Source of the DNA: a virus
Direction: 5' to 3' (one strand)
Length of the DNA: 58,796 nucleotides
IMG/VR virus record: IMGVR_UViG_3300042542_005195
Location: 1 to 58,796 of that record
Program-made: the position numbers and the translations under genes
In this document: in pieces, positions 19,538 to 54,696 of the stretch
How positions within the stretch are numbered: the stretch's first letter is position 1
Layout: every line of letters begins with the position of its first letter
The notes under the pieces: model-generated
What the model saw: the letters and a program-made list of their open reading frames with translations, nothing else
What the model was told of the DNA's origin: nothing
Databases searched by the model: none

Positions 19538-19900
19538 ATGTCTAGACCACAAAAAAAGAAAATTGAGTTAACAAAAGAATCAATGTTATCTCTGATGCAA
19601 GAAATCTATAATGAACTTGTAGAGCAAAGAAATACTGCAATTCGTATCCAAAACAAGATGTTATCCATGATGAAAGACCCAGAGGATATGACATTAATTG
19701 GACCCGTGATTGAAAAACAACAAAAAATAATCAACGATTGTGTAGAAAAGAAATTACAACTTTCAAAACTGCAATCAACTATTTGGGAAAAATCTTCATC
19801 AAAAGAAGAAAGTTTCTCAATATCTGATATGGACGATGATTTGATTGAGGATTTAATCAAAAAAGATGTCGAGCAAAATAAAACCTTCAAACTTAAATAA
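19538..19900 (+). CDS. Hypothetical small alpha-helical protein
   Basis: A 120-residue, strongly helical, charged protein. Residues 10-80 look like a coiled coil with heptad Leu/Ile/Met positions, and the acidic tail ends in DDLIEDLIKK. I do not recognise a family. It sits between the gp55-like gene and a large virion gene. T4 gp33, the late-transcription co-activator, is of similar size, but I see no sequence feature that proves this. Its stop overlaps the next ATG by one base. Confidence 0.7.
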   Translation: MSRPQKKKIELTKESMLSLMQEIYNELVEQRNTAIRIQNKMLSMMKDPEDMTLIGPVIEKQQKIINDCVEKKLQLSKLQSTIWEKSSSKEESFSISDMDDDLIEDLIKKDVEQNKTFKLK

Positions 19901-21807
19901 TGGCGGATTTAAACAAGGGGTATGGTGAGGCAAACAAAAAGATTAGCGGGTTCCAAACCTTTAAACAATCTAAATCAGACATAAAATCAATAACTTCAAA
20001 ATTAGGTGATTCTGACTCACCTGCCGATTCCGATATTGCCAATCCACTTAACAAACTGGAGGAGCAAAAAAATAGAGCTCAAAAAGCAGTACAAGACCAA
20101 ATTTCACAACTTTTGGGTGTTTTGAAACAGTTCAGTGGTCAAGGTTTGGCCACTACAAAAGTATTCAAAAGAATAATGGTTAAAACTGTAAAAAAAATAA
20201 GACCTGAAGTTGATGAGTTAGTTATTAATGAAATTATAAAATTATTAGGTTGTTCTCAACAACAATCATTCGAAGGTGACCAAGATTTTTATATAAAAGT
20301 AAGAACAGCCGATTTTAAAAACCTATTTCAAGTAGACCCCGAGTCCAATGTAGGTAAAACAAAATACGAAAAAAATAAAGATTTAGATAGTTTTGGACCT
20401 AAATACCCGTTAAACAGACAACTTTATAAAAGAATACAAGAAGAGGGTATTCCATATACCTTCAAAGGGGCATCTGAACAAGAGTTATTTGATATTAGTT
20501 ATGTACAACAAGACGAAAACGGAACACCTGGTGATTTTTTTAAGGTTTCTTTAAAGAATAGACAAACTGTACCGAATAAAGTTGTCGAATTCTTGAGAGA
20601 CTATTATAAAAGAGTTTCACTATTTGATTTCTCAATAATAATGGGTGAGTTAATGAATAATCTAACAGGTGCCGTGTCAATACAAGGAGGCGCGGGTGTA
20701 AGTACAACTAAAGATAATTCAAAATTTGGAAGAATCTTAGCAAGAATATTGGGTATGTGTTTTGACAATAGACGAGAGATTGATGTAAGTGGTGTTGCTA
20801 AAGTTGGGGAATTAGATAATTTGGATGATGATTTTTTTGAATTTACTGATTTGGATTTGATGTCTATTGACCAAGAAGTTACAAACATACAGAACAGTGC
20901 GGTTGAGATTGAGGGTTGTGATAATATCAAATTTCCTGTAAATTCTTTTGAAATTTTACAAGCAATCGATGATATAAATTTTGTTGATGAGAATGACGAT
21001 GAGGCTTTACTTGCGGCACTTGATAATGTGATTAATTCATTTACGAATAGTCAAGCAGGAATAGGTATTGGTGTTGATATAAATCTTTCACTACAATTCA
21101 ACTTCGGATTTGTGTCTAAATTTCCACTTTCATTTATTTCATCAATTTTTTCCCCTAAAGTATTTTTGGGGTTATTAATAATGTTAAAAGCCCTTGGAAA
21201 ATTTACAATATCCAATGAGGTCGAATCTATGGTCGATTTTACAAAAAAATATAAATCATTAGTTGTTGGATTGGCCTCTAAAATTGGAGGATTGTTTGTG
21301 AGAGAACTTTTTAAATACATAAAAAAAGACATTGTAATTTTATTGAAATCTATTTCAAAAGATGTTGCAACAGAACTTAAGGACAAACAAACCGCTATGT
21401 ACATTGCATTAGCCGCGTATCTGATTCAAATTATACAGATAATACAAGATTGGAGGCAATGTAAGTCAGTTTTGGACCAATTACTAGGTTTGTTGCAAAT
21501 ACCCGGATTACCAGGCCCTAATCAAATCGTTCCGCCACCACTCTTATTTTTCACACCTCAATTAAAAGGGTATTCTGCTGAACGTTCATACTTAGAATAT
21601 ATAAAAGAACTCCAAAAACTTGGGTTACCAACGGGACCACTACCTGACGGTAGTCCGAACTTGGGGTTGATTGGGGATTACGCCCTTTTGAAGGGTCAAT
21701 CAAGTGAGTTATTTGCAAACGGTAAAACTGAATTTGTGATACCGGCCTTAGGAGTTACCCCAGCTGGTGTAACCTCACCAATTAATTGGTCAGGAAAATT
21801 CGTTTAA
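19900..21807 (+). CDS. Large virion protein, probably baseplate
   Basis: A 635-residue protein with no catalytic motifs I recognise. The first 110 residues are polar and helical. The middle is acidic (DDDFFEFTDLDLM). Residues about 400-540 contain amphipathic and hydrophobic helices including TAMYIALAAYLIQIIQIIQ, and the C-terminal 110 residues are rich in Pro and Gly (PGLPGPNQIVPPPLL). Its position directly before a gp5-like spike gene suggests a baseplate or tail role. A membrane-interacting or tape-like function is possible for the hydrophobic section. Confidence 0.62.
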   Translation: MADLNKGYGEANKKISGFQTFKQSKSDIKSITSKLGDSDSPADSDIANPLNKLEEQKNRAQKAVQDQISQLLGVLKQFSGQGLATTKVFKRIMVKTVKKIRPEVDELVINEIIKLLGCSQQQSFEGDQDFYIKVRTADFKNLFQVDPESNVGKTKYEKNKDLDSFGPKYPLNRQLYKRIQEEGIPYTFKGASEQELFDISYVQQDENGTPGDFFKVSLKNRQTVPNKVVEFLRDYYKRVSLFDFSIIMGELMNNLTGAVSIQGGAGVSTTKDNSKFGRILARILGMCFDNRREIDVSGVAKVGELDNLDDDFFEFTDLDLMSIDQEVTNIQNSAVEIEGCDNIKFPVNSFEILQAIDDINFVDENDDEALLAALDNVINSFTNSQAGIGIGVDINLSLQFNFGFVSKFPLSFISSIFSPKVFLGLLIMLKALGKFTISNEVESMVDFTKKYKSLVVGLASKIGGLFVRELFKYIKKDIVILLKSISKDVATELKDKQTAMYIALAAYLIQIIQIIQDWRQCKSVLDQLLGLLQIPGLPGPNQIVPPPLLFFTPQLKGYSAERSYLEYIKELQKLGLPTGPLPDGSPNLGLIGDYALLKGQSSELFANGKTEFVIPALGVTPAGVTSPINWSGKFV

Positions 21808-23625: not shown

Positions 23626-25119
23626 ATGTCTATAAATAATTCATATTTCAGTAGAAATAATACCATATTATCTAACGTTTATACAAACACAGGAAAAGCC
23701 CCTGTGACACAATTATATTTTGGAAATATAAATCCTGAAAATCCAATACCTGTTTATTCTAGATTTATTTTTAATTTAGACTTATCTTTATTGGAAGAAA
23801 AAATCTCAAACGGTATAATCCAAACAGGTTGCACATCATCAATGACTCACACATTGATTATGACTAACACGGCCTTTTCTTCTCCTGATTTGTTAAAAGC
23901 GAACAGATTTGGTGATACCATAACAAGAGGTGCAGGATTTGATTTGATATTATTTAGAATACCGTTAACATCAGGAGCGACAGGTATGGAACAAACTTGG
24001 GATGAGGGATTAGCGTCGGTTTATGATTTAGGAATACAAATTAATGACACGGAATCTTTGTTTTCACGAGAAAATTATTCTACAGAACCATCAAATTGGT
24101 TTAAAAGGAAAATTACAGATGATTGGACAAACCCTGGATTATATAATAACGAAAACTCTCTGACAGGTTTAACAGGGCTTAATTATTCTGCTCTCACAAT
24201 TATTGCTGAACAACATTTTGAATTTGGAAATGAAAACATTTCATTTGATATGACAAATGAAATAAATGGAATTCTAAATGGTACAATTACTGGCGTTACA
24301 GGTTGGGGTGTTGCATTTAAACCATCGATTGAATTATTAACAGGGTTAACTTCGTATTATTCAGTTGGATTTTTTACTCGTCATACTCAAACTTTTTACG
24401 AACCTTATTTATTAACGGATTATGATGATTTAATTCAAGATGATAGGGATTTATTCTCATTGGGAAGAGCAAACAAACTTTATTTATATGTTTATGAAGA
24501 TGGAAGTCCAATTAATTTGGATTCTAACCCATATGTTAATATTATAGACAGTACAGGAGAACCAATATCAGGATTGACATCATTAACTACTTGTAGAAAA
24601 ACAAAAGGGGTTTATGAAGTTATTATACCAGCCTTATTAGGATATAAAGCCCCTTGTACATTTAATGACGTGTGGACAGGAATTACTCTAAATGGAATTA
24701 CACTACCAAACATAGAAAATGAATTAATTGTAAGACCTTATTCATCGTCAATTTCAATTGGTACCTCAACAAACGACCCATCTGTTTATGGTTTTGATTA
24801 TTATGGTATAAGACAAGATGAAAAAATTCTAAATACTGACATTAGAAAAGTGGGTGTCATAATAAAAAAAGAATATACATCAAATCAACCTCTTAACAAA
24901 ATCAAAGCGTATTATAGGGTTTATGTTAAGGAGGGTCAAACAGAAGTTCAAGTTCAAGATTGGACACAGGTTAATAAAACTCCAAATGAATACTATTTTA
25001 TTTTTGATACAAGAGATAAAATTCCAAACGAATATTTCATAGATTTAAAGTTGAATATTAATAGTGAAGTAACAACATATAAAAAACAAATAAAATTTCA
25101 AATTGTAAATAAAAAATGA
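23626..25119 (+). CDS. Virion structural protein, probably tail or baseplate
   Basis: A 497-residue protein rich in Thr, Ser, Gly and Asn with beta-strand-like alternation and many short TG-containing turns, as in tail fibres or baseplate wedge proteins. No recognised domain. The first 40 residues (FSRNNTILSNVY) are polar. It follows the spike gene by 35 bases and overlaps the next gene by four. Confidence 0.6.
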   Translation: MSINNSYFSRNNTILSNVYTNTGKAPVTQLYFGNINPENPIPVYSRFIFNLDLSLLEEKISNGIIQTGCTSSMTHTLIMTNTAFSSPDLLKANRFGDTITRGAGFDLILFRIPLTSGATGMEQTWDEGLASVYDLGIQINDTESLFSRENYSTEPSNWFKRKITDDWTNPGLYNNENSLTGLTGLNYSALTIIAEQHFEFGNENISFDMTNEINGILNGTITGVTGWGVAFKPSIELLTGLTSYYSVGFFTRHTQTFYEPYLLTDYDDLIQDDRDLFSLGRANKLYLYVYEDGSPINLDSNPYVNIIDSTGEPISGLTSLTTCRKTKGVYEVIIPALLGYKAPCTFNDVWTGITLNGITLPNIENELIVRPYSSSISIGTSTNDPSVYGFDYYGIRQDEKILNTDIRKVGVIIKKEYTSNQPLNKIKAYYRVYVKEGQTEVQVQDWTQVNKTPNEYYFIFDTRDKIPNEYFIDLKLNINSEVTTYKKQIKFQIVNKK

Positions 25120-35927: not shown

Positions 35928-37703
35928 TTATCTCATACCACCAAAAAGCCAATTATACTTCATATATTCCTCCCTTGATGGTCCAGAGTTAAGATTTGGG
36001 TCACCGTATCTTGACGGCATATTCGGAATTTGTGGGTTAAATGCGATTGATTTTGAAGGTAAATCGTCCTCTTGAACCATCCACGAATTTAACATTGCTT
36101 TTGTCTGTTCTGTAACTTTTGTTAATTGACTAAACGAGGATTCTGCAACATACATCGCCATCGCAATTGACATAATTAAGTCGTCATGACCCCCTTTTTG
36201 ATGGTCAGGTCTTCCATTAACGTAAACAAACCCATTCATTTCATTTAACAATCTTGAACTTTTGAGTTTGAACTCATGTCTAACCGCCTCTTCAAAAGAT
36301 GCGATAATTTGAACCCTTTTTGAATTGAAATTAATACCAGGAATTTTTTCCGCTTGTTTAGGGTCATATTTCCATTTATTTTGATAATCAACCCCATCAA
36401 CATATAAATTTTTATATCCCAATTCTTGCATTTTTCTTGATGTAGAAACTCCCATACCTCCCGTGATATCAATTACAACAAACGCTGAATACATATTTGC
36501 CCACTTATAACAAATCTCAGCCATGATATCAGGAGGAAGTTTACCAACAAATTCTGCAACTTGTTCTCTTTCGTCAAAATCAATTATCTGAAATGTTGAA
36601 AAATCCTCGGAATCTCCTCTTGAGACATCGACACCCATTACATACTTATGTCCGGCAACAGGTTCTTTCCAAATCCAAAGTGAATTTGACATCATCTTAT
36701 TTTGAGGTTCCGTAATTTGGTTTTCTCTGATTTTTTGTAGAACCTTTGAGTCAAATACGTTATCCCCTGAACCTAAAAAGTTGCACTCTAATTCTTGTGA
36801 TACTTTTCGTTTGTCGTATTTTAATTTTTTAACCATAGATTCAAACCACGATGATGATGGTTTGTATCCTATTGACATATAATGTTTTATTTTTTCATAA
36901 TGTTCTTGATTTGTAACATCATAATCGTTGATTGGTTTAATTAAATCTTGGCTATAATTTTCTTTATTTAAAAAATAATCAATAATATCATCCGTTTGAA
37001 CCAAATATAAATCTTTTGTATATCTTGGGTCTTTATACCAATACATTTCAGAGATTTTGAAATCATTCATCGCTCTGATTGATTGGTCGTAAATTTCATA
37101 ATAAATTGGGTCGTGCCCGTTTGGTGTTGAGATAACAATCACTTTACCACCCGTAGATAGTGATGCCATACACGCCGACCAAAAGTCAGCATCTGCTTCA
37201 ATATAAGCGGCCTCATCAAAAATAAGAATTGTTGGGGTATATCCACGAAGAGCATCCTTTGATGTTGCAACCGCCTTTACCTCACAACCATTGGTTAATT
37301 TATAGTGTCTTTGTGAATTTTTTTCTTTTGTAAAACCAACATCAACCCACGATGGCCATTGTTCAACAAATGCTCTGACCTTATTCGCCATTTCTTGAGC
37401 GGTATCCAATTTGTTAGCAATAATCAGAATTTTTTCAGGTTTTGTTTTTTTCGCAAATACCAATCTTTTGGACGCCCAAGCCGCGGTTACAGTAGATACA
37501 CCCGCCTGACGATACTTAAGTGCAATATTTTCGTTAAAATTTTCGTAATCATCTAATAAAGATACTTGGTCAGGAAATAATTCTAATGGAACGTATTTAG
37601 ATACAGTATTATCATAGGTCTGTAAATATGTGCGAAGTGCGTAAGGGGTATCCTTTACGCACTTCACATATTCTATTAATACTTGTTCTTTTGTATAACT
37701 CAT
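35928..37703 (-). CDS. Terminase large subunit, T4 gp17-like
   Basis: A 591-residue packaging motor protein. The ATPase half has KYRQAGVST at about residues 63-71 (the Walker A variant of this family), Walker B ILIFDEAAYIE at 160 and the coupling motif ISTPNG near 191. The nuclease half has MGVDVSRGDSEDF with catalytic Asp359 and, near the C-terminus, HDDLIMSIAMAM with the paired aspartates. It cuts concatemers and pumps DNA through the portal. The start overlaps the upstream gene's stop by one base. Confidence 0.95.
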   Translation of the reverse strand: MSYTKEQVLIEYVKCVKDTPYALRTYLQTYDNTVSKYVPLELFPDQVSLLDDYENFNENIALKYRQAGVSTVTAAWASKRLVFAKKTKPEKILIIANKLDTAQEMANKVRAFVEQWPSWVDVGFTKEKNSQRHYKLTNGCEVKAVATSKDALRGYTPTILIFDEAAYIEADADFWSACMASLSTGGKVIVISTPNGHDPIYYEIYDQSIRAMNDFKISEMYWYKDPRYTKDLYLVQTDDIIDYFLNKENYSQDLIKPINDYDVTNQEHYEKIKHYMSIGYKPSSSWFESMVKKLKYDKRKVSQELECNFLGSGDNVFDSKVLQKIRENQITEPQNKMMSNSLWIWKEPVAGHKYVMGVDVSRGDSEDFSTFQIIDFDEREQVAEFVGKLPPDIMAEICYKWANMYSAFVVIDITGGMGVSTSRKMQELGYKNLYVDGVDYQNKWKYDPKQAEKIPGINFNSKRVQIIASFEEAVRHEFKLKSSRLLNEMNGFVYVNGRPDHQKGGHDDLIMSIAMAMYVAESSFSQLTKVTEQTKAMLNSWMVQEDDLPSKSIAFNPQIPNMPSRYGDPNLNSGPSREEYMKYNWLFGGMR

Positions 37704-47694: not shown

Positions 47695-48867
47695 TTAACT
47701 ACCGACTTTAGAAATTGCACTAGCAACTTTTGAAGTTTTATCTATAACTTTTAAGGTTTCTCCTGATGAGTCGTATGATTTGTCTGCTAAATAACCCGCA
47801 CCTGATTTAACTAAATCGGTACCCGCTTTTGTTACCATTTTTTTAACTGCTTTGGCTGCCGTTACAAATTCCGAAAGACTACCCAATATTTTTTCAATAC
47901 CAACAATAATCGGTTCTAAAAATTTAAATTCTAAGGCCAACTGACCCAATTTTGATACCATAGCCTCAAAAAGAGACGTAAAGTTTGCCTTCGTTAACCA
48001 TTTAAACGCTTGAGGGTTGGCTTTTATGAAATCCACAACTACACTATAAGTCCCTTTAGTTAAAGAACTTGTCTTGAACACATTACTTACTATTTTGGCT
48101 CCAGGTCCAAATGTAATAACACCCGCTAAATCCGTTAAAATATTTATCCAATCGGCCTCTCCGGTATTTGTCCATTGTTTAATATCCCAAGCCAATAACA
48201 ATCCCCAAGCAACTTCTACAAGTATCGCTCCGAAACCTAAAGAATCTAAAACTACTTGTGCCCCTACACCCGCAACAGAATTCATTGCTTCTCTGAATTC
48301 CTTGAAGAATCCATCCCATCCCAACTCACTAATTTTTGCGGCTAAAGTGTTATTTTCACAAAGTTTTTTTTCAGGGTCGTATTTTTGTTCTCTATGATTA
48401 TTACAAAAATTTGTATGACATAAATATTTATATCCTCCTTGTTTAAATAAAACATAATCTGATTTTGGATTCGATTTACAGGCAGTATAAACTTGTTTTG
48501 TTACCTCAGCACTTTTTTGAAATTGTTGACCTGATTGATTATATGAATTTTTTTGGGATTGATTTTGTTGATTAGTTTTTTGATAGTCAAAACCTTGACG
48601 TAAAGTGTTTTGGTCTATTGTTGTTGGGAAAGAGTTTTTTTGATACGGTTGGTTAGGAAAAACATATTTCGCATCTATCCCACCTGTTGGTATCTGACCT
48701 TTAACGTCTTCTCCGAATTTACCTTTACTGTCATAATAATAAACAGTCATTTGTTCATTTAATAGATTAGAAAAAATCTCGAGCAAATTTTCAGATTGAG
48801 CCCTATCAAATTCATTTTTGTAATATAGAGACAATATTGCTTTTTTTTCAGATTCTGAGAGATTCAT
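47695..48867 (-). CDS. Probable packaged protein with long hydrophobic helices
   Basis: The leader (residues 1-38) is helical and ends IFSNLLNE followed by Gln, a prohead protease-type site. Residues about 80-125 are Gln/Asn-rich, followed by a Cys cluster (ACKSNP, LCHTNFCNNH, KLCENN) that may bind metal or form disulfides. From residue 190 on there are amphipathic and hydrophobic helices (GAILVEVAWGLLLAWDI, LTDLAGVITFGPGA). A membrane-penetrating or DNA-ejection role is plausible. It shares the leader idea, not the sequence, with the next two genes. 390 residues. Confidence 0.6.
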   Translation of the reverse strand: MNLSESEKKAILSLYYKNEFDRAQSENLLEIFSNLLNEQMTVYYYDSKGKFGEDVKGQIPTGGIDAKYVFPNQPYQKNSFPTTIDQNTLRQGFDYQKTNQQNQSQKNSYNQSGQQFQKSAEVTKQVYTACKSNPKSDYVLFKQGGYKYLCHTNFCNNHREQKYDPEKKLCENNTLAAKISELGWDGFFKEFREAMNSVAGVGAQVVLDSLGFGAILVEVAWGLLLAWDIKQWTNTGEADWINILTDLAGVITFGPGAKIVSNVFKTSSLTKGTYSVVVDFIKANPQAFKWLTKANFTSLFEAMVSKLGQLALEFKFLEPIIVGIEKILGSLSEFVTAAKAVKKMVTKAGTDLVKSGAGYLADKSYDSSGETLKVIDKTSKVASAISKVGS

Positions 48868-48879
48868 TACATATTAACT

Positions 48880-49515
48880 TTAAAATTTATATCGTTCTCT
48901 AGTAAACTTCATCAGACCTCTTATCAAACCTATTACAACAATTGCAATTATAGAAATTACCATTCCTGAGGCAGGTGAAATATTTATGCCCGCAATGGTA
49001 CTAAAAAGAAATGAATGTATCAGACCAAAAGATAAGACATTAATACCAAAAATTCTCTGTAACATAAAACCAATCTTTTGTTCTATTCCGCCTTTAACAT
49101 CTTTCAGTTCTGTATCGAAAGAATCCGCATCTTTACTATTATCGTATTTAAGATAATCAGACCAAAATCCCTCACCCAAATTCTTAGATGAAAACATACT
49201 TTCTAAAGATGATTTTACTTCGTCTTCACTCATTTTGGTTACGTCTTTACCAAAAAAATTAGAAGCATTTTGAATTAGTTTTTCAGGATTTGGTAGTTCT
49301 GATAATACTTTATCAGGTATTGATTCTACTTTTTCTTTTACTGATTGTAAAACATCAGATAAACTTTGACCTGCATCTTTTACATAATCGTCACCAGGGT
49401 AAAACATAGAATCCATTGGCGACTCTGAAATGATTGTACTATACCCTTTATTTTTATGCATTTCCAAAATTCTTTGTTTTTCTGATTTTGGAATATCGTT
49501 AAATAAATTTTTCAT
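48880..49515 (-). CDS. Probable packaged membrane protein
   Basis: The first 26 residues, NLFNDIPKSEKQRILEMHK and on, are nearly identical to the start of the next gene, and the segment ends IISE followed by Ser at residue 31, a possible protease site. The middle is helical and acidic. The C-terminus has two hydrophobic segments (VLSFGLIHSFLFSTIAGI and MVISIIAIVVIGLIRGLM) separated by a short polar turn. It probably inserts into the host membrane on ejection or assembles in the virion. 211 residues. Confidence 0.62.
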   Translation of the reverse strand: MKNLFNDIPKSEKQRILEMHKNKGYSTIISESPMDSMFYPGDDYVKDAGQSLSDVLQSVKEKVESIPDKVLSELPNPEKLIQNASNFFGKDVTKMSEDEVKSSLESMFSSKNLGEGFWSDYLKYDNSKDADSFDTELKDVKGGIEQKIGFMLQRIFGINVLSFGLIHSFLFSTIAGINISPASGMVISIIAIVVIGLIRGLMKFTRERYKF

Positions 49516-49542: not shown

Positions 49543-50250
49543 TCAATTTTGAATTGACCTAGATGCGACTTTACCTTGGTTTAAGAACCTGTCTCTGATT
49601 TCACGGAATTCCTTTGCTGTTAAATTCTTTAAACACATCTTGAATAAAAGGTCTTTTTTAACGCCTCCATCTTTAATCCAACCTCCAGGTTTTTTATCTA
49701 CGGATGTATTGTCTATAGCGGTCTCTTGTTTATAACTCATACCTGAATCCTCCCACTCAATTTTAACAAATTGTTCTTTCTCCGCTTCAGGACTATTCAT
49801 TTTTGTTGCACTACCAACAACATTATAAGTGTTCCAAGTAACATTATTAACACCATCTTCTTTTGCTGCAGTGACAAAATTGTTTGCCCTTTCTTTCGCT
49901 AGCGATTTGTTGTCGAAACCTTGGGCGGTACCAACATTTGACGCACCTCCGGTCACTTTTACCAAAGTATTGTTTGGTAAATTTTTTAGTTTTTTAATGA
50001 GTTCCTTGTATTCAGGTAAATTTTTATTTATTGCAGAAATTCCGTTTTTGAATAGGTTAGAACCCAAAAGTTCTGTGTTTTTGTAATATGTTAATTTTTC
50101 TTTGAATGGTTTAGTATCGTCTTCCATACCTGGCGCTCCTGTTCTGTCATCCCTATAAGGTTGTTCAGACAATGTATAACCACGTTTTTTGTGTAATTCC
50201 AAAATTCTTTGTTTTTCTGATTTTGGAATATCGTTAAATAAATTTTCCAT
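49543..50250 (-). CDS. Packaged-type leader fused to an OmpA-like domain
   Basis: The leader NLFNDIPKSEKQRILELHK is shared with the preceding gene product; it ends TLSE followed by Gln at residue 29. Residues about 70-170 resemble an OmpA-like domain: NTLVKVTGGASNVGT, then DNKSLAKERANNFV (the N-x-x-L-x-x-x-R-A helix) and WNTYNVVGSAT. OmpA-like domains bind peptidoglycan, suggesting contact with the cell wall during entry. The C-terminus is basic and helical. 235 residues. Confidence 0.65.
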   Translation of the reverse strand: MENLFNDIPKSEKQRILELHKKRGYTLSEQPYRDDRTGAPGMEDDTKPFKEKLTYYKNTELLGSNLFKNGISAINKNLPEYKELIKKLKNLPNNTLVKVTGGASNVGTAQGFDNKSLAKERANNFVTAAKEDGVNNVTWNTYNVVGSATKMNSPEAEKEQFVKIEWEDSGMSYKQETAIDNTSVDKKPGGWIKDGGVKKDLLFKMCLKNLTAKEFREIRDRFLNQGKVASRSIQN

Positions 50251-51730: not shown

Positions 51731-52110
51731 GGGGATGACATAGCATCGATTGGCACGGTTGTCAATCAAGGGCGCATCAAGGACGAACTAACCTTGTCAA
51801 AATGGTTCAAATCAATAGACGGAAACGTTATCAACAAACTTTCAGCTGTAGGACTTGTTCGTACTTCTGAAACAGTAGCAGTAGCCTAAGGCGAACCTAC
51901 CTCGGGTCGGCGTACTTATAACCTAGGAACAGAAGTACTTGAAGTGTGTGGTTTCTACCAAAAAAGAAACAAAAACCTCGTTTTGTCTGTTATGAGGAGG
52001 TATTCAAAACAGAATATTTCGGAACATTATGAATTAATGTTGTAATATGTGCGTAGTCCTTGATTCGCAAAGTGAGCAAGACCGGGGGGCGGCACCCCGC
52101 ATCTCCACCA
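51731..52110 (+). ncRNA. ssrA: tmRNA (transfer-messenger RNA)
   Basis: About 380 nt. The acceptor stem GGGGATG (51731-51737) pairs with CATCTCC (52100-52106), giving the G3-U70 identity pair for alanyl-tRNA synthetase, and the sequence ends ACCA with CCA encoded. Helix P2 is formed by ATCAAGGAC (51776-51784) and GTCCTTGAT (52056-52064). The mRNA-like part reads through GAC GGA AAC GTT ... GCA GTA GCC TAA (stop 51887-51889), a tag ending in VAVA. A GTACTT/AAGTAC hairpin follows the stop, as in tmRNA pseudoknots. The T-arm is CGGGG-GGCGGCA-CCCCG, lacking the normal TTCRA loop. It rescues stalled ribosomes in phage-infected cells. Confidence 0.9.
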
Positions 52111-52113
52111 TCT

Positions 52114-52143
52114 AAAACCTCATCAGAAATGGTGGGGTTTTTT
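52114..52143 (+). terminator. Rho-independent terminator after tmRNA
   Basis: AACCTCATCA (52116-52125), GAAA tetraloop, TGGTGGGGTT (52130-52139) with two or three G-U pairs, then TTTT. It begins six bases after the tmRNA CCA and overlaps the last bases of the convergent gene. Confidence 0.85.
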
Positions 52144-52954
52144 ATTTTAATAGGGATGCGGCATATTCCAATGCCCCCCAATGACCAATTCCTGAAGGTG
52201 TCTCTGTCGCCCCATCAACAACACCTGAACCCCTACCTTGACTTGGACCAACAATTACATTACTCGCAGGCACTCCTTTACTTACCGCATTATTAATTGA
52301 TGTTCGGACACCTGCAGATATCGCATAAGGTTCAACAATAAAAAGTTTATTTTTATCATCCATTGCACTTGAAATATCATTTGCATATCTGCAACCCGCG
52401 CTAAATAAAATCACATATGAATTTGGATTATTCTTTATAGAATTTAAAACATCAGATAACTCAAAATATCTATGTCCAATAACATTTTCTGAACCTGATG
52501 ATTTTTTAACTTTGTCAACTTGTTGATTTATATTTAAATCACCTCCTCTTGTATCTAACCCACCCATTAAAATGATATCGGAATTACCGCCATCTTTTTT
52601 TACTGTAATTGTAGAAGGTTCATTTTTTTCTTTTTCAATTTCTTCAGATGAAGATTCCGATTTACAAAAATCGGGTGTTTTCCATTCTACCTCTTTATCT
52701 TCCAATTTTTTAATATAACCTGTTGTTATCGGACCTACAACTCCGTCATCTTCAATCCCCATATCAGATTGAAATTTTTGAACACATTTTTTTGTTTGCG
52801 GACCAAATTTACCGTCAATATAAATCCCTAAAATTTTTTGTAATTCTTCAACATCAGTACCAACTGAACCTACTTTTAGAATTCCATCCAAAGTAAAGGA
52901 TTCATCAATTCTCATGATTTCTTTTATTCTTAATATGTTTTCAATCAAATTCAT
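52142..52954 (-). CDS. Peptidoglycan-binding-domain protein with cleavable leader
   Basis: Start taken at the ATG at 52954, four bases after an ATATTTAT element. Residues 1-18 (NLIENILRIKEIMRIDE) end I-D-E before Ser, a prohead protease-type site. Then comes a PG_binding_1 domain (VGTDVEELQKILGIYIDGKFGPQTKKCVQKFQ in pieces: the LQ-L, DG-FG and T...V..FQ landmarks). A polar linker precedes a C-terminal alpha/beta domain with DIILMGGLDTRGG, YVILFSAGCRYAND and GIGHWGALEYAASLL; a Ser/Gly nucleophile-like SAG is visible, so it could be a hydrolase of the cell wall, but I cannot name it. 270 residues. Confidence 0.72.
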   Translation of the reverse strand: MNLIENILRIKEIMRIDESFTLDGILKVGSVGTDVEELQKILGIYIDGKFGPQTKKCVQKFQSDMGIEDDGVVGPITTGYIKKLEDKEVEWKTPDFCKSESSSEEIEKEKNEPSTITVKKDGGNSDIILMGGLDTRGGDLNINQQVDKVKKSSGSENVIGHRYFELSDVLNSIKNNPNSYVILFSAGCRYANDISSAMDDKNKLFIVEPYAISAGVRTSINNAVSKGVPASNVIVGPSQGRGSGVVDGATETPSGIGHWGALEYAASLLK

Positions 52955-52958
52955 AATA

Positions 52959-52966
52959 ATAAATAT
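52959..52966 (-). promoter_or_regulatory. ATATTTAT element (minus) before the 52954 gene
   Basis: Exact 8-mer four bases before the ATG at 52954, directly after the terminator of the upstream ncRNA. Confidence 0.5.
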
Positions 52967-52969
52967 CAT

Positions 52970-53006
52970 AAAAATAAAAAAGGGTCATCACCGAAGTGAA
53001 AACCCT
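52970..53006 (-). terminator. Rho-independent terminator of the minus-strand ncRNA
   Basis: On the minus strand AGGGT-TT-TCAC, loop TTCG, GTGA-TG-ACCCT, then TTTTTTATTTTT. The stem has one 2x2 internal loop and a very stable UUCG tetraloop. Plus coordinates of the arms: 53002-53006/52981-52985 and 52996-52999/52988-52991. Confidence 0.85.
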
Positions 53007-53540
53007 GTTTGGCTATTGGTTTCGTGGTTGGGTTTCCAATAAACCCAAGTTTAATTGTAGTGAGCAAATAACTCGAATCGTTCGACCACTCGACGGATGT
53101 GTTAAACAGTTAATTACCTCTGTTTTTTATTCGTTTCGCTGAACCCCAAACGAACGGTGTGGTTATCACATCTACTCACACTCTTTAAAAGGTGGACTAT
53201 TTTTTTGTTTTCATGGGTATGGGGTATGAAACACATAACAAGTTCCTAGAACATAAACAAAAAACCCCCGAACACAATATTTTTTTTGTTTTTTTATTAT
53301 CCCGAAAAATTAGGTGGCTTCATCCGATTCCACCGTAAACGGTTCACTAGTTGCGACGCTTTGGAGTTGAACCAAATTAGTGATGCTTATGAGACACCCC
53401 CAGATACCGACCTGACCGCCCGCCATATTTTATAACCATAAGTAAAGAACAATTTCAGAATATGCTACTGACTCGCGTATAATCGGTGACTTTCATCACT
53501 CTTTATTGTCAGGTTCACACCAGACCTCCTTTCTGAATTG
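52975..53540 (-). ncRNA. Large structured non-coding RNA of unknown family
   Basis: A stretch of about 565 nt without a convincing gene lies between a perfect promoter and a UUCG-capped terminator on the minus strand. Helices visible by eye (plus coordinates): 53531-53540 with 53450-53460, 53508-53512 with 53468-53472, 53496-53499 with 53486-53489, 53524-53527 with 53511-53514, 53378-53382 with 53345-53349, 53372-53376 with 53360-53364 (loop TTCAACT, T-loop-like), 53177-53181 with 53157-53161, 53148-53154 with 53130-53136, 53167-53172 with 53096-53101, and 53041-53048 with 53028-53035. GC content is above the flanking genes. It is not tRNA, RNase P or tmRNA by conserved motifs. Giant phage RNAs such as GOLLD also lie near tRNA-type genes, but I could not assign it to that family. 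Confidence 0.72.
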
Positions 53541-53601: not shown

Positions 53602-53648
53602 CCCCACCCTATCATAAAAACAACAACCTAAATACTGACAGGGTGGGG
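53602..53648 (-). other. Long-range hairpin CCCCACCCT/AGGGTGGGG
   Basis: Nine perfect pairs between 53602-53610 and 53640-53648 enclosing a 29-base A/T-rich loop. On the minus strand it lies just downstream of the second promoter and upstream of the ncRNA promoter. No U-run follows, so it is not a normal terminator. It could be a small RNA or an upstream leader domain of the larger RNA. Confidence 0.55.
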
Positions 53649-53666: not shown

Positions 53667-53696
53667 CAAAGGTAAAAACTTTTTCGGATATCACAA
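53667..53696 (-). promoter_or_regulatory. Second Bacteroidota-type promoter upstream of the ncRNA
   Basis: On the minus strand TTG (53696-53694), 19 bases, TACCTTTG (53674-53667). Predicted start about 53660, so the transcript would begin with the CCCCACCCT hairpin. Confidence 0.7.
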
Positions 53697-53724: not shown

Positions 53725-53779
53725 TTCTTAAAAAATGTTAATTATAATTGAACTTGAAATAAACAAAATTATAAGAACT

Positions 53780-53938
53780 ATGAAAAATCTATTATTTATT
53801 TTTGCAATCGTCATTGGACTTTCATCTTGCGGTGGGTCATCAGAGGGAACTCCATCAACTGATTCTACTTCAGTAGATTCTACAGTGGTTGATTCTTGTA
53901 CTGTAGATACTTGCAAAGTTGATTCTTGCAAAAAATAA
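53780..53938 (+). CDS. Small lipoprotein
   Basis: The start at 53780 gives a 52-residue protein; a longer frame from 53735 would put a polar segment before the signal sequence. KNLLFIFAIVIGLSSC is a short signal peptide with lipobox LSSC, so Cys17 should be lipidated. The mature part begins CGGSSEGT and then repeats VDS/VDT units with three more Cys (DSCTVDTCKVDSCKK). Small phage lipoproteins such as T5 Llp block receptors against superinfection, a possible role here. It has its own promoter and a strong terminator, like an independently expressed (moron-type) gene. Confidence 0.8.
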   Translation: MKNLLFIFAIVIGLSSCGGSSEGTPSTDSTSVDSTVVDSCTVDTCKVDSCKK

Positions 53939-53994: not shown

Positions 53995-54696
53995 TTAAAA
54001 CAATCTTTTGATTTTTTCTATTTCCTCTTTTAACAGATTTTGGAATTCTGTATTTCGATTCTCATTTGTCTTATTCTTATTAGCAGGAGTAAACCAAGTT
54101 TTACCCTTTAAAGGTGGTGCATATCTTTCCTCATCTGACATTTTACTTTTTTTTGCAGGAGTAAAAAAGGATTTTCCTTTGAGCATATTCAGAGGTGCGG
54201 CTAACGCATCGGCAAATACTTGATGCGCAATAGTTAATCCCTTGGTTCTTTTAAAAGCACCTGTGGAGGTGTCGTCACCATAAGTTTTTATATTTTGAGA
54301 TTTAGGTTTCGTTTCCTCACCTTTATTTCTTGTTGTTTTATTTTCAGGTTTTTCTCCTGAAACTCCAAAAAAGCTACTTGGGCTCAAATTACTAAATCCA
54401 TCATTTATACTAAACTCAACAGGGTTCGAGCCAAATCTACCTATTTTCTGACCAGTAGATACATTATCACCTCTTGATACCAATATTGTATTAACACCAC
54501 AAAATTCAGAATAAATGGTTGAGCCATTGAAATTGTGTTTTATTTTTATATTACCTCCACATGACGAGTATGATGTTGTTGTTACAACACCGTCGTAAGG
54601 AGATAAAATTTCTTGCATGTTATATCCTGCATATTCTAAAACATTATCACCTTTCTTATTTGACGAACCGTTTATTGGTTTTATAAATGTTGACAT
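53995..54696 (-). CDS. Degenerate M23/LytM-like virion protein
   Basis: Residues 20-115 follow the LytM fold: ILSPYDGVVTT, GGNIKIKH, STIYSEFCGV, VSRGDNVSTGQKIGRFG and VEFSI. In active M23 peptidases the GxHxGxD, YxHL and HLHFE motifs bind zinc; here they read EYAG, YSEF and VEFS, so all the usual ligands are lost and the domain is probably a binding module. The rest is Lys-rich with two copies of the motif LKGKSFFTPA (second LKGKTWFTPA). The tail ends in a coiled-coil-like NLLKEEIEKIKRLF. 233 residues. Confidence 0.68.
   Translation of the reverse strand: MSTFIKPINGSSNKKGDNVLEYAGYNMQEILSPYDGVVTTTSYSSCGGNIKIKHNFNGSTIYSEFCGVNTILVSRGDNVSTGQKIGRFGSNPVEFSINDGFSNLSPSSFFGVSGEKPENKTTRNKGEETKPKSQNIKTYGDDTSTGAFKRTKGLTIAHQVFADALAAPLNMLKGKSFFTPAKKSKMSDEERYAPPLKGKTWFTPANKNKTNENRNTEFQNLLKEEIEKIKRLF

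What the first reader, a model, noticed from the sequence alone, without database searches (positions are those of the whole stretch)
52975..53540. Undescribed large structured RNA next to tmRNA
About 565 nt on the minus strand with a perfect host promoter, a UUCG-capped terminator and at least ten helices visible by eye, one with a T-loop-like TTCAACT hairpin. The predicted start coincides with the outer helix. No coding gene explains it. It matches the general profile of giant phage RNAs (GOLLD, ROOL) but I could not recognise their motifs, so it may be a new family. This is the best candidate for a new system in the window.
Basis: partly seen in the sequence, partly recalled or inferred. 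Interest (0 to 1): 0.88.

Follow-up and report, generated by a model that had tools for sequence, protein, structure and literature searches.

The report
Cage-less remnant of a GOLLD RNA locus
A virus of Bacteroidota bacteria carries a structured non-coding RNA at the spot where its relatives encode GOLLD, an RNA that builds hollow nanocages; here the cage-building part is gone while the tRNA-like and pseudoknotted flanks are kept, which gives a natural way to ask what the flanks do without the cage.

Summary
Window 53540-52976 (-) is a real non-coding RNA locus with a TTG-N19-TANNTTTG promoter, a conserved UUCG terminator, and helices proven by covariation rather than by folding energy (z -0.16). 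It is not an unrelated new family. In close relatives the syntenic locus, convergent with tmRNA, encodes GOLLD (RF02032, 304-330 bits in the tail-bearing long forms). The window has lost the GOLLD cap and core (about 885 nt) and keeps the flanks: a leader with a structured 5' domain and boxA, a tRNA(CAU)-like cloverleaf (source of the 'T-loop' hairpin), and a ~340-nt tail with three pseudoknots. An independent contig (L178) has the same GOLLD-less form, so it is no assembly artefact. Tail and cloverleaf: 94.8% of cells paired, 20 pairs with two-sided changes, 0/500 shuffles. Between the two short forms, paired sites changed 4.9% and unpaired 14.7% (p=0.0017). GOLLD leaders in these phages copy host rRNA leaders (promoter, hairpin, boxA GTTCTTTGA), pointing to rRNA-style antitermination. 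Best reading: a retained, probably working appendage of a GOLLD nanocage gene that has shed the cage. Its biochemical role is unproven. The 5' domain and tail match nothing in Rfam.

The parts
53667..53696 (-). upstream promoter P1 (TTG-N19-TANNTTTG)
   Evidence: exact match; corresponding upstream promoter with -7 element in L003, L165, L166 and L178
53602..53648 (-). 13-bp hairpin between P1 and P2 (CCCCACCCTGTCA...TGATAGGGTGGGG)
   Evidence: sequence; same hairpin in L003, L165, L166, L178
53546..53575 (-). main promoter P2 (TTG-N19-TANNTTTG), predicted start about 53540
   Evidence: exact match; promoter-to-boxA architecture shared by GOLLD loci and host rRNA leaders
53454..53537 (-). structured 5' domain (H1 53537-53531/53460-53454, H2 53512-53508/53472-53468, H3 53498-53495/53490-53487; conserved core GGAGGUCUGGUGUGAACC...GUAGCA)
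   Evidence: covariation 7/16 pairs, 0/500 shuffles; present in L003, L164, L165, L166, L178, L197
53441..53450 (-). boxA-like element GTTCTTTACT
   Evidence: same place as boxA GTTCTTTGAAA between promoter and GOLLD start in relatives; same motif in Bacteroidota rRNA leaders
53427..53440 (-). junction at which about 885 nt (GOLLD cap and core of L003) are missing
   Evidence: blastn of the window RNA against L003 splits here: 5' part at 19143-18863, 3' part at 17979-17523
53350..53423 (-). tRNA(CAU)-like cloverleaf; T loop UUCAACU; acceptor stem with a bulge
   Evidence: folds as a cloverleaf; a true tRNA-Met in L002, L165, L166 at the same place; identical in L178
53013..53349 (-). 3' tail domain: hairpins T1 (53334-53313), T2 (53231-53209), T3 (53181-53157), T4 (53154-53130), T5 (53125-53104), T7 (53071-53051), T8 (53046-53030) and pseudoknots 53268/53221, 53172/53096, 53040/53015
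   Evidence: homologues in L002, L003, L164, L165, L166, L178 and a distant one in L010
52976..53005 (-). intrinsic terminator, UUCG-capped stem plus U-tract
   Evidence: sequence; helix 14
51731..52110 (+). tmRNA, convergent with the RNA (syntenic marker)
   Evidence: RF00023, 69.2 bits; a convergent tmRNA lies near GOLLD in the relatives

Best explanation
Shown: this is the GOLLD locus of a T4-like phage of Bacteroidota from which the cage-forming GOLLD RNA (5' cap plus 3' core) is missing. One transcription unit remains: leader with structured 5' domain and boxA, tRNA(CAU)-like cloverleaf, pseudoknotted tail, terminator. In relatives the same cloverleaf (often a true tRNA-Met) and tail sit at the 3' end of a full GOLLD RNA with no terminator or promoter seen between them, so each subunit of the 14-mer cage would carry them. 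Inferred: the leader recruits the host NusB/S10 antitermination complex through boxA, as rRNA operons do, so that a long untranslated RNA is made in large amounts. Inferred: cloverleaf plus tail is a functional appendage or payload of the cage that can act without it; hence it was kept under structural selection after the cage was lost. Inferred and open: the cloverleaf may also be the processing point (RNase P / tRNase Z) that frees the tail as its own RNA.
For: Homology and synteny: the window RNA aligns to L003 in two blocks (79% and 88% identity) flanking a 330-bit GOLLD; same arrangement in L164, L165, L166, and GOLLD, tRNA-Met and tail in L002. 26 of 49 related records carry GOLLD over the cut-off, convergent with tmRNA and within 6.4 kb in 26 of the 27 GOLLD-plus-tmRNA records compared. 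Reality of the short form: L178/G084, a different contig, has the same GOLLD-less locus and no GOLLD in its 40.8 kb. Selection: covariation; window against L178 paired sites 8/162 changed, unpaired 43/292, Fisher p=0.0017; cloverleaf identical in both. Window and L178 group together with support 90, and RNA ligase is 87.5% identical to L178 against 78% to L003/L164, so one loss before their split is the simplest history. Leader: promoter, ~57 nt, boxA GTTCTTTGAAA, 8-12 nt, GOLLD start, in nearly all loci examined, boxA in 12/12 of a motif-selected subset against 0.9% by chance; same layout in Bacteroidota rRNA leaders, 27 of 36 with this promoter. GOLLD as 14-mer cage, and tRNAs sometimes in its linker: PMC12286853.
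Against: No expression data. The window and G084 are fragments, while relatives' records reach 261-321 kb, so a GOLLD elsewhere in these genomes is not excluded (one relative, G031, has two). The tail-only tree does not resolve window+L178 (support 37), so two recent independent losses are possible and the constraint would then date from before the loss. Window T7 has one U-U mismatch; the acceptor stem of the cloverleaf is imperfect and ARAGORN does not call it. L178 lacks boxA directly upstream of the cloverleaf (it has one further upstream).
Confidence: 0.6

Rival explanations
1. Decaying relic: the GOLLD body was deleted recently and the flanks are leftovers without function.
For: The acceptor stem of the cloverleaf is imperfect, there is a U-U mismatch in T7, junctions differ between window and L178, and the tail-only tree leaves room for two recent losses.
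Against: The same form exists in two contigs 85% identical in the tail; substitutions between them avoid paired sites (p=0.0017); cloverleaf identical over its whole length; promoter, terminator and pseudoknots intact in both. The imperfect acceptor stem is also found in the long forms L003 and L164 and in L197.
Confidence: 0.2
2. The tail is an independent small RNA: GOLLD (where present), tRNA and tail form a polycistron, cut at the tRNA. Losing the GOLLD body leaves tail expression untouched. (Compatible with the best explanation; confidence overlaps.)
For: tRNA or cloverleaf lies exactly between GOLLD core and tail in tail-bearing phages, true tRNA-Met in L002, L165, L166; no promoter pattern between cloverleaf and tail; the tail survives without GOLLD.
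Against: The window cloverleaf has a bulged acceptor stem, so RNase P and tRNase Z cleavage is uncertain. Not tested.
Confidence: 0.3
3. GOLLD body supplied in trans from elsewhere in the genome, with this locus a split-off appendage.
For: Window and G084 are fragments; G031 carries two GOLLD copies.
Against: The other GOLLD-bearing records, including those of 261-321 kb, have a single GOLLD match over the cut-off; no GOLLD in the window or in G084.
Confidence: 0.08
4. Assembly artefact: GOLLD dropped out of the contig.
For: Metagenomic contig; reads not available.
Against: An independent contig (L178) from a related but distinct phage has the same form with a similar junction next to the cloverleaf.
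Confidence: 0.02
5. A new large RNA family unrelated to GOLLD.
For: No Rfam match above chance even at E<=10.
Against: Flank-by-flank homology and synteny with GOLLD loci.
Confidence: 0.02

Closest known systems
GOLLD RNA (Rfam RF02032; 14-mer nanocage, PMC12286853)
   Same: Same locus, same type of leader, same convergent tmRNA, same 3' cloverleaf and tail as GOLLD-bearing relatives
   Different: The 416-nt conserved GOLLD core and the upstream cap region are absent; the RNA is about 565 nt instead of about 1,450 (L003)
ROOL RNA
   Same: Large structured phage RNA
   Different: No Rfam match; homology is to GOLLD loci
Bacterial rRNA operon leader (promoter, hairpin, boxA)
   Same: Promoter type, spacing and GTTCTTTGA element in the GOLLD-bearing relatives; boxA-like GTTCTTT in the window
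   Different: No rRNA follows; in the window the small hairpin is replaced by an 84-nt structured domain and the boxA reads GTTCTTTACT
Phage tRNA-Met / tRNA(CAU)
   Same: Cloverleaf, CAU anticodon loop, canonical T arm (UUCAACU)
   Different: Bulged acceptor stem; not called by ARAGORN or by Rfam tRNA at the gathering score; embedded in a longer RNA

Membership tests
GOLLD (RF02032) | Conserved 3' region reaching the curated 150-bit score | tested here: not met
   No match in the window at gathering nor at E<=10; L178 none at E<=5
GOLLD (RF02032) | Less conserved 5' cap region upstream of the core | tested here: not met
   Window aligns to L003 and L165 only outside that region
GOLLD (RF02032) | Genomic setting: phage, near or carrying tRNAs | tested here: met
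   tRNA(CAU)-like cloverleaf inside; syntenic with GOLLD loci of relatives
GOLLD (RF02032) | Assembles into a 14-mer cage | not testable with these tools
   The parts that form the cage in the cryo-EM structure (PMC12286853) are missing, so not expected
ROOL | Rfam match | tested here: not met
tRNA | Cloverleaf with 7-bp acceptor stem, called by ARAGORN or Rfam | tested here: not met
   Cloverleaf folds, but acceptor is bulged; not called
rrn-type boxA leader | Promoter, hairpin, then GTTCTTTGA-type boxA ahead of a long untranslated RNA | tested here: inconclusive
   Met at sequence level in the GOLLD-bearing relatives and host rRNA leaders; the window element is GTTCTTTACT, which keeps the core GTTCTTT but not the following GA
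rrn-type boxA leader | Binding of NusB/S10 and antitermination activity | not testable with these tools
   needs biochemistry or a reporter

The most novel reading that the evidence does not exclude
The cloverleaf and pseudoknotted tail are the working cargo of GOLLD nanocages: an RNA device that the cage displays or encloses in many copies, able to act alone, and transcribed under host rRNA-type antitermination. The cage-less phages are natural deletion mutants that separate cargo from cage.
Probability: 0.3. Interest if true: 0.85.

Novelty: new variant of a known kind. Interest (0 to 1): 0.62.

Why it matters
GOLLD forms one of the few known natural RNA-only cages and its function is unknown (PMC12286853). 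A lineage that dropped the cage but kept the linked tRNA-like element and a conserved pseudoknotted tail says the flanks matter on their own, and gives a test: compare phages with tail and cage, cage only, and tail only. The rRNA-type boxA leader offers an explanation of how such long untranslated RNAs are made in quantity; a search of the held library for GOLLD together with boxA found only unrelated plant papers. It also warns that loci without the Rfam GOLLD core can still be GOLLD loci.

Tried and rejected
Rfam search at loose thresholds: only chance hits. Folding energy as evidence: uninformative (z -0.16). DNA search in cultured phages: no match for the window RNA; with the L165 long form the strongest matches are two unannotated 'uncultured phage' records of about 635-640 kb, then Acinetobacter phages (over roughly the core region) and tRNA-Met genes of Gordonia phages. 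Neighbour protein 52142-52969 found no relatives in viral contigs. A short coding frame in the 5' domain (GUG after AGGAGGU): ends differ among homologues, rejected. The AGAAAGGAGGU stretch (complement of the 16S 3' end) as a ribosome-binding device: intact in the window but broken in L178 (AGAAAAGAGGU), not pursued. The L196 match to the 5'-domain pattern lies in an unrelated coding region and was set aside as chance. Single-sequence MFE of the tail disagrees between homologues; the comparative structure was used instead. The tail model R1 finds no tail in most GOLLD relatives; in several of the loci examined the core is followed shortly by a terminator.

Full report
What was checked. The window is a 58.8-kb virus record, probably a fragment, with T4-like head genes (major head protein, portal, terminase). 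Promoters of the type TTG-N19-TANNTTTG and cultured terminase relatives that include Flavobacterium phages fit a Bacteroidota host (inference). The finding at 53540-52975(-) holds as described: exact promoter, UUCG-capped terminator, no credible coding frame, no Rfam match. Folding energy is not unusual (z -0.16), so helices seen by eye in one sequence would not have sufficed.

What it is. Relatives found by two conserved proteins resolve the locus. In L003 the window RNA aligns as two blocks separated by about 885 nt. That gap holds GOLLD, RF02032, 330 bits against a gathering score of 150, model positions 1-416. L164, L165 and L166 show the same layout, and L002, whose contig ends within the locus, has GOLLD, tRNA-Met and tail. 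26 of 49 related records have GOLLD over the cut-off. GOLLD lies convergent with tmRNA, within 6.4 kb in 26 of the 27 records compared, and the window RNA is convergent with a tmRNA at 51731-52110(+). So this is the GOLLD locus without GOLLD.

The deletion is real. A pattern from the tail found L178, a 40.8-kb contig of a related phage (terminase 95%, RNA ligase 87.5% identical). It has promoters, 5' domain, cloverleaf, tail and terminator in the same order, with no GOLLD in its record. The missing stretch starts after the 5' domain and ends just before the cloverleaf, that is, at domain borders. Window and L178 group together (support 90 with the cloverleaf, 37 on the tail alone), and RNA ligase identity to L178 exceeds that to the GOLLD-bearing L003 and L164 phages (87.5% against 78%), which favours one loss before their split without proving it.

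Anatomy. (a) Leader. In the GOLLD relatives the order is promoter, small hairpin, boxA GTTCTTTGAAA, then 8-12 nt to the conserved GOLLD start ATTATCC. In 12 of 12 motif-selected loci GTTCTT(T/A) lies in the 190 nt upstream, against 0.9% in shuffles. Host 16S leaders of Bacteroidota carry the same element, 27 of 36 with the same promoter type upstream. In the window the small hairpin is replaced by an 84-nt domain with covarying helices (7 of 16 pairs changed on both sides, 0/500 shuffles), and boxA reads GTTCTTTACT. boxA as the NusB/NusE site that protects rRNA transcription from Rho is established (PMC4807359, abstract); its action here is inference. (b) Cloverleaf, 53423-53350: D arm, CAU anticodon arm and canonical T arm, acceptor stem with a bulge. 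In L002, L165 and L166 the same position holds a tRNA-Met called by ARAGORN. (c) Tail, 53349-53013: seven hairpins and three pseudoknots. Cloverleaf, tail and terminator together: 81 pairs, 94.8% of cells paired, 20 pairs with changes on both sides, covariation score 0.305 against 0.156 in shuffles, 0/500; every slid control is at or below about 47% paired. T5 shows it best: CAG/CUG in the window, UAG/CUA in L178, AGGU/ACCU in L003. A covariance model of T3-T8 found a distant tail in L010 (26 bits, E 4e-4 in its own record), downstream of GOLLD and tRNA-Met as expected; L011 shows similar motifs by eye only.

How it most likely works. Shown: locus identity, loss of the cage body, structural constraint on what remains. 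Window against L178, paired sites changed 8/162 and unpaired 43/292, p=0.0017; if the loss preceded their split, this constraint acted without the cage. Inferred: rRNA-like antitermination; cloverleaf plus tail as cage appendage or payload with a job of its own; possible release by tRNA processing enzymes. GOLLD forms a 14-mer cage with separate cap (5') and ring (3') domains, and tRNAs are sometimes found in its linker (PMC12286853). In the phages studied here the tRNA and tail are instead at the 3' end, after the core.

Limits. The helix set for one search was derived by comparing these same homologues, so cells-paired leans towards it; the two-sided changes carry more weight. MAFFT misplaces T1 and T4 in L165/L166, which lowers the counts. 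The 12-locus boxA test is a motif-selected subset; the wider list is. The shuffles there kept base composition only. Window and G084 are fragments. No expression data exist here.

Verdict. A real, structurally conserved RNA; a GOLLD-locus derivative that fails the GOLLD membership test because the defining core is absent; two uncatalogued RNA domains (5' domain and tail). New variant of a known kind.

Noticed in passing
L010 3892 (-), L166 8778 (-), L178 205 (+) (offsets of the motif on the strand named); upstream of the GOLLD or short locus: A ~130-nt conserved element (CAGTCTAGGTCCGTAGGGCTACTG...) follows a promoter and boxA-like GTTCTTTAAA in three phages and is nearly identical among them; possibly another small structured RNA, no Rfam match in L178.
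   Followed up: partly
window 53602-53648 and L003, L165, L166, L178: A 13-bp G+C-rich hairpin with a long loop sits between two promoters and is conserved; not followed by a U-tract, so not an ordinary terminator on this strand.
   Followed up: no
G031 19736-20149 and 36280-36673: One relative carries two GOLLD copies 16 kb apart.
   Followed up: no
L197 6600-8240: The 5' domain has its own promoter, separate from a second promoter plus boxA in front of GOLLD; the tRNA(CAU)-like element lies about 250 nt after the core, beside further tRNAs.
   Followed up: partly
window ORFs 47695-48867, 48880-49515, 49543-50250, 52142-52969 (N-termini) and 53995-54696 (C-terminus): Otherwise different proteins share a short terminal helical motif (such as LFNDIPKSEKQRILEMHK, or EEIEKIKRLF); similar endings occur in relatives. 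By eye they could be virion or capsid targeting signals; speculative.
   Followed up: no
window 53735-53938 (+): Small lipoprotein-like ORF rich in Ser/Thr/Cys repeats upstream of the RNA, divergent from it; a similar ORF lies at the same place in L003 and L165.
   Followed up: no
window 23680-23759 (-): ARAGORN calls a tRNA-Trp antisense inside a 497-aa ORF (23626-25119 +); possibly a false call.
   Followed up: no
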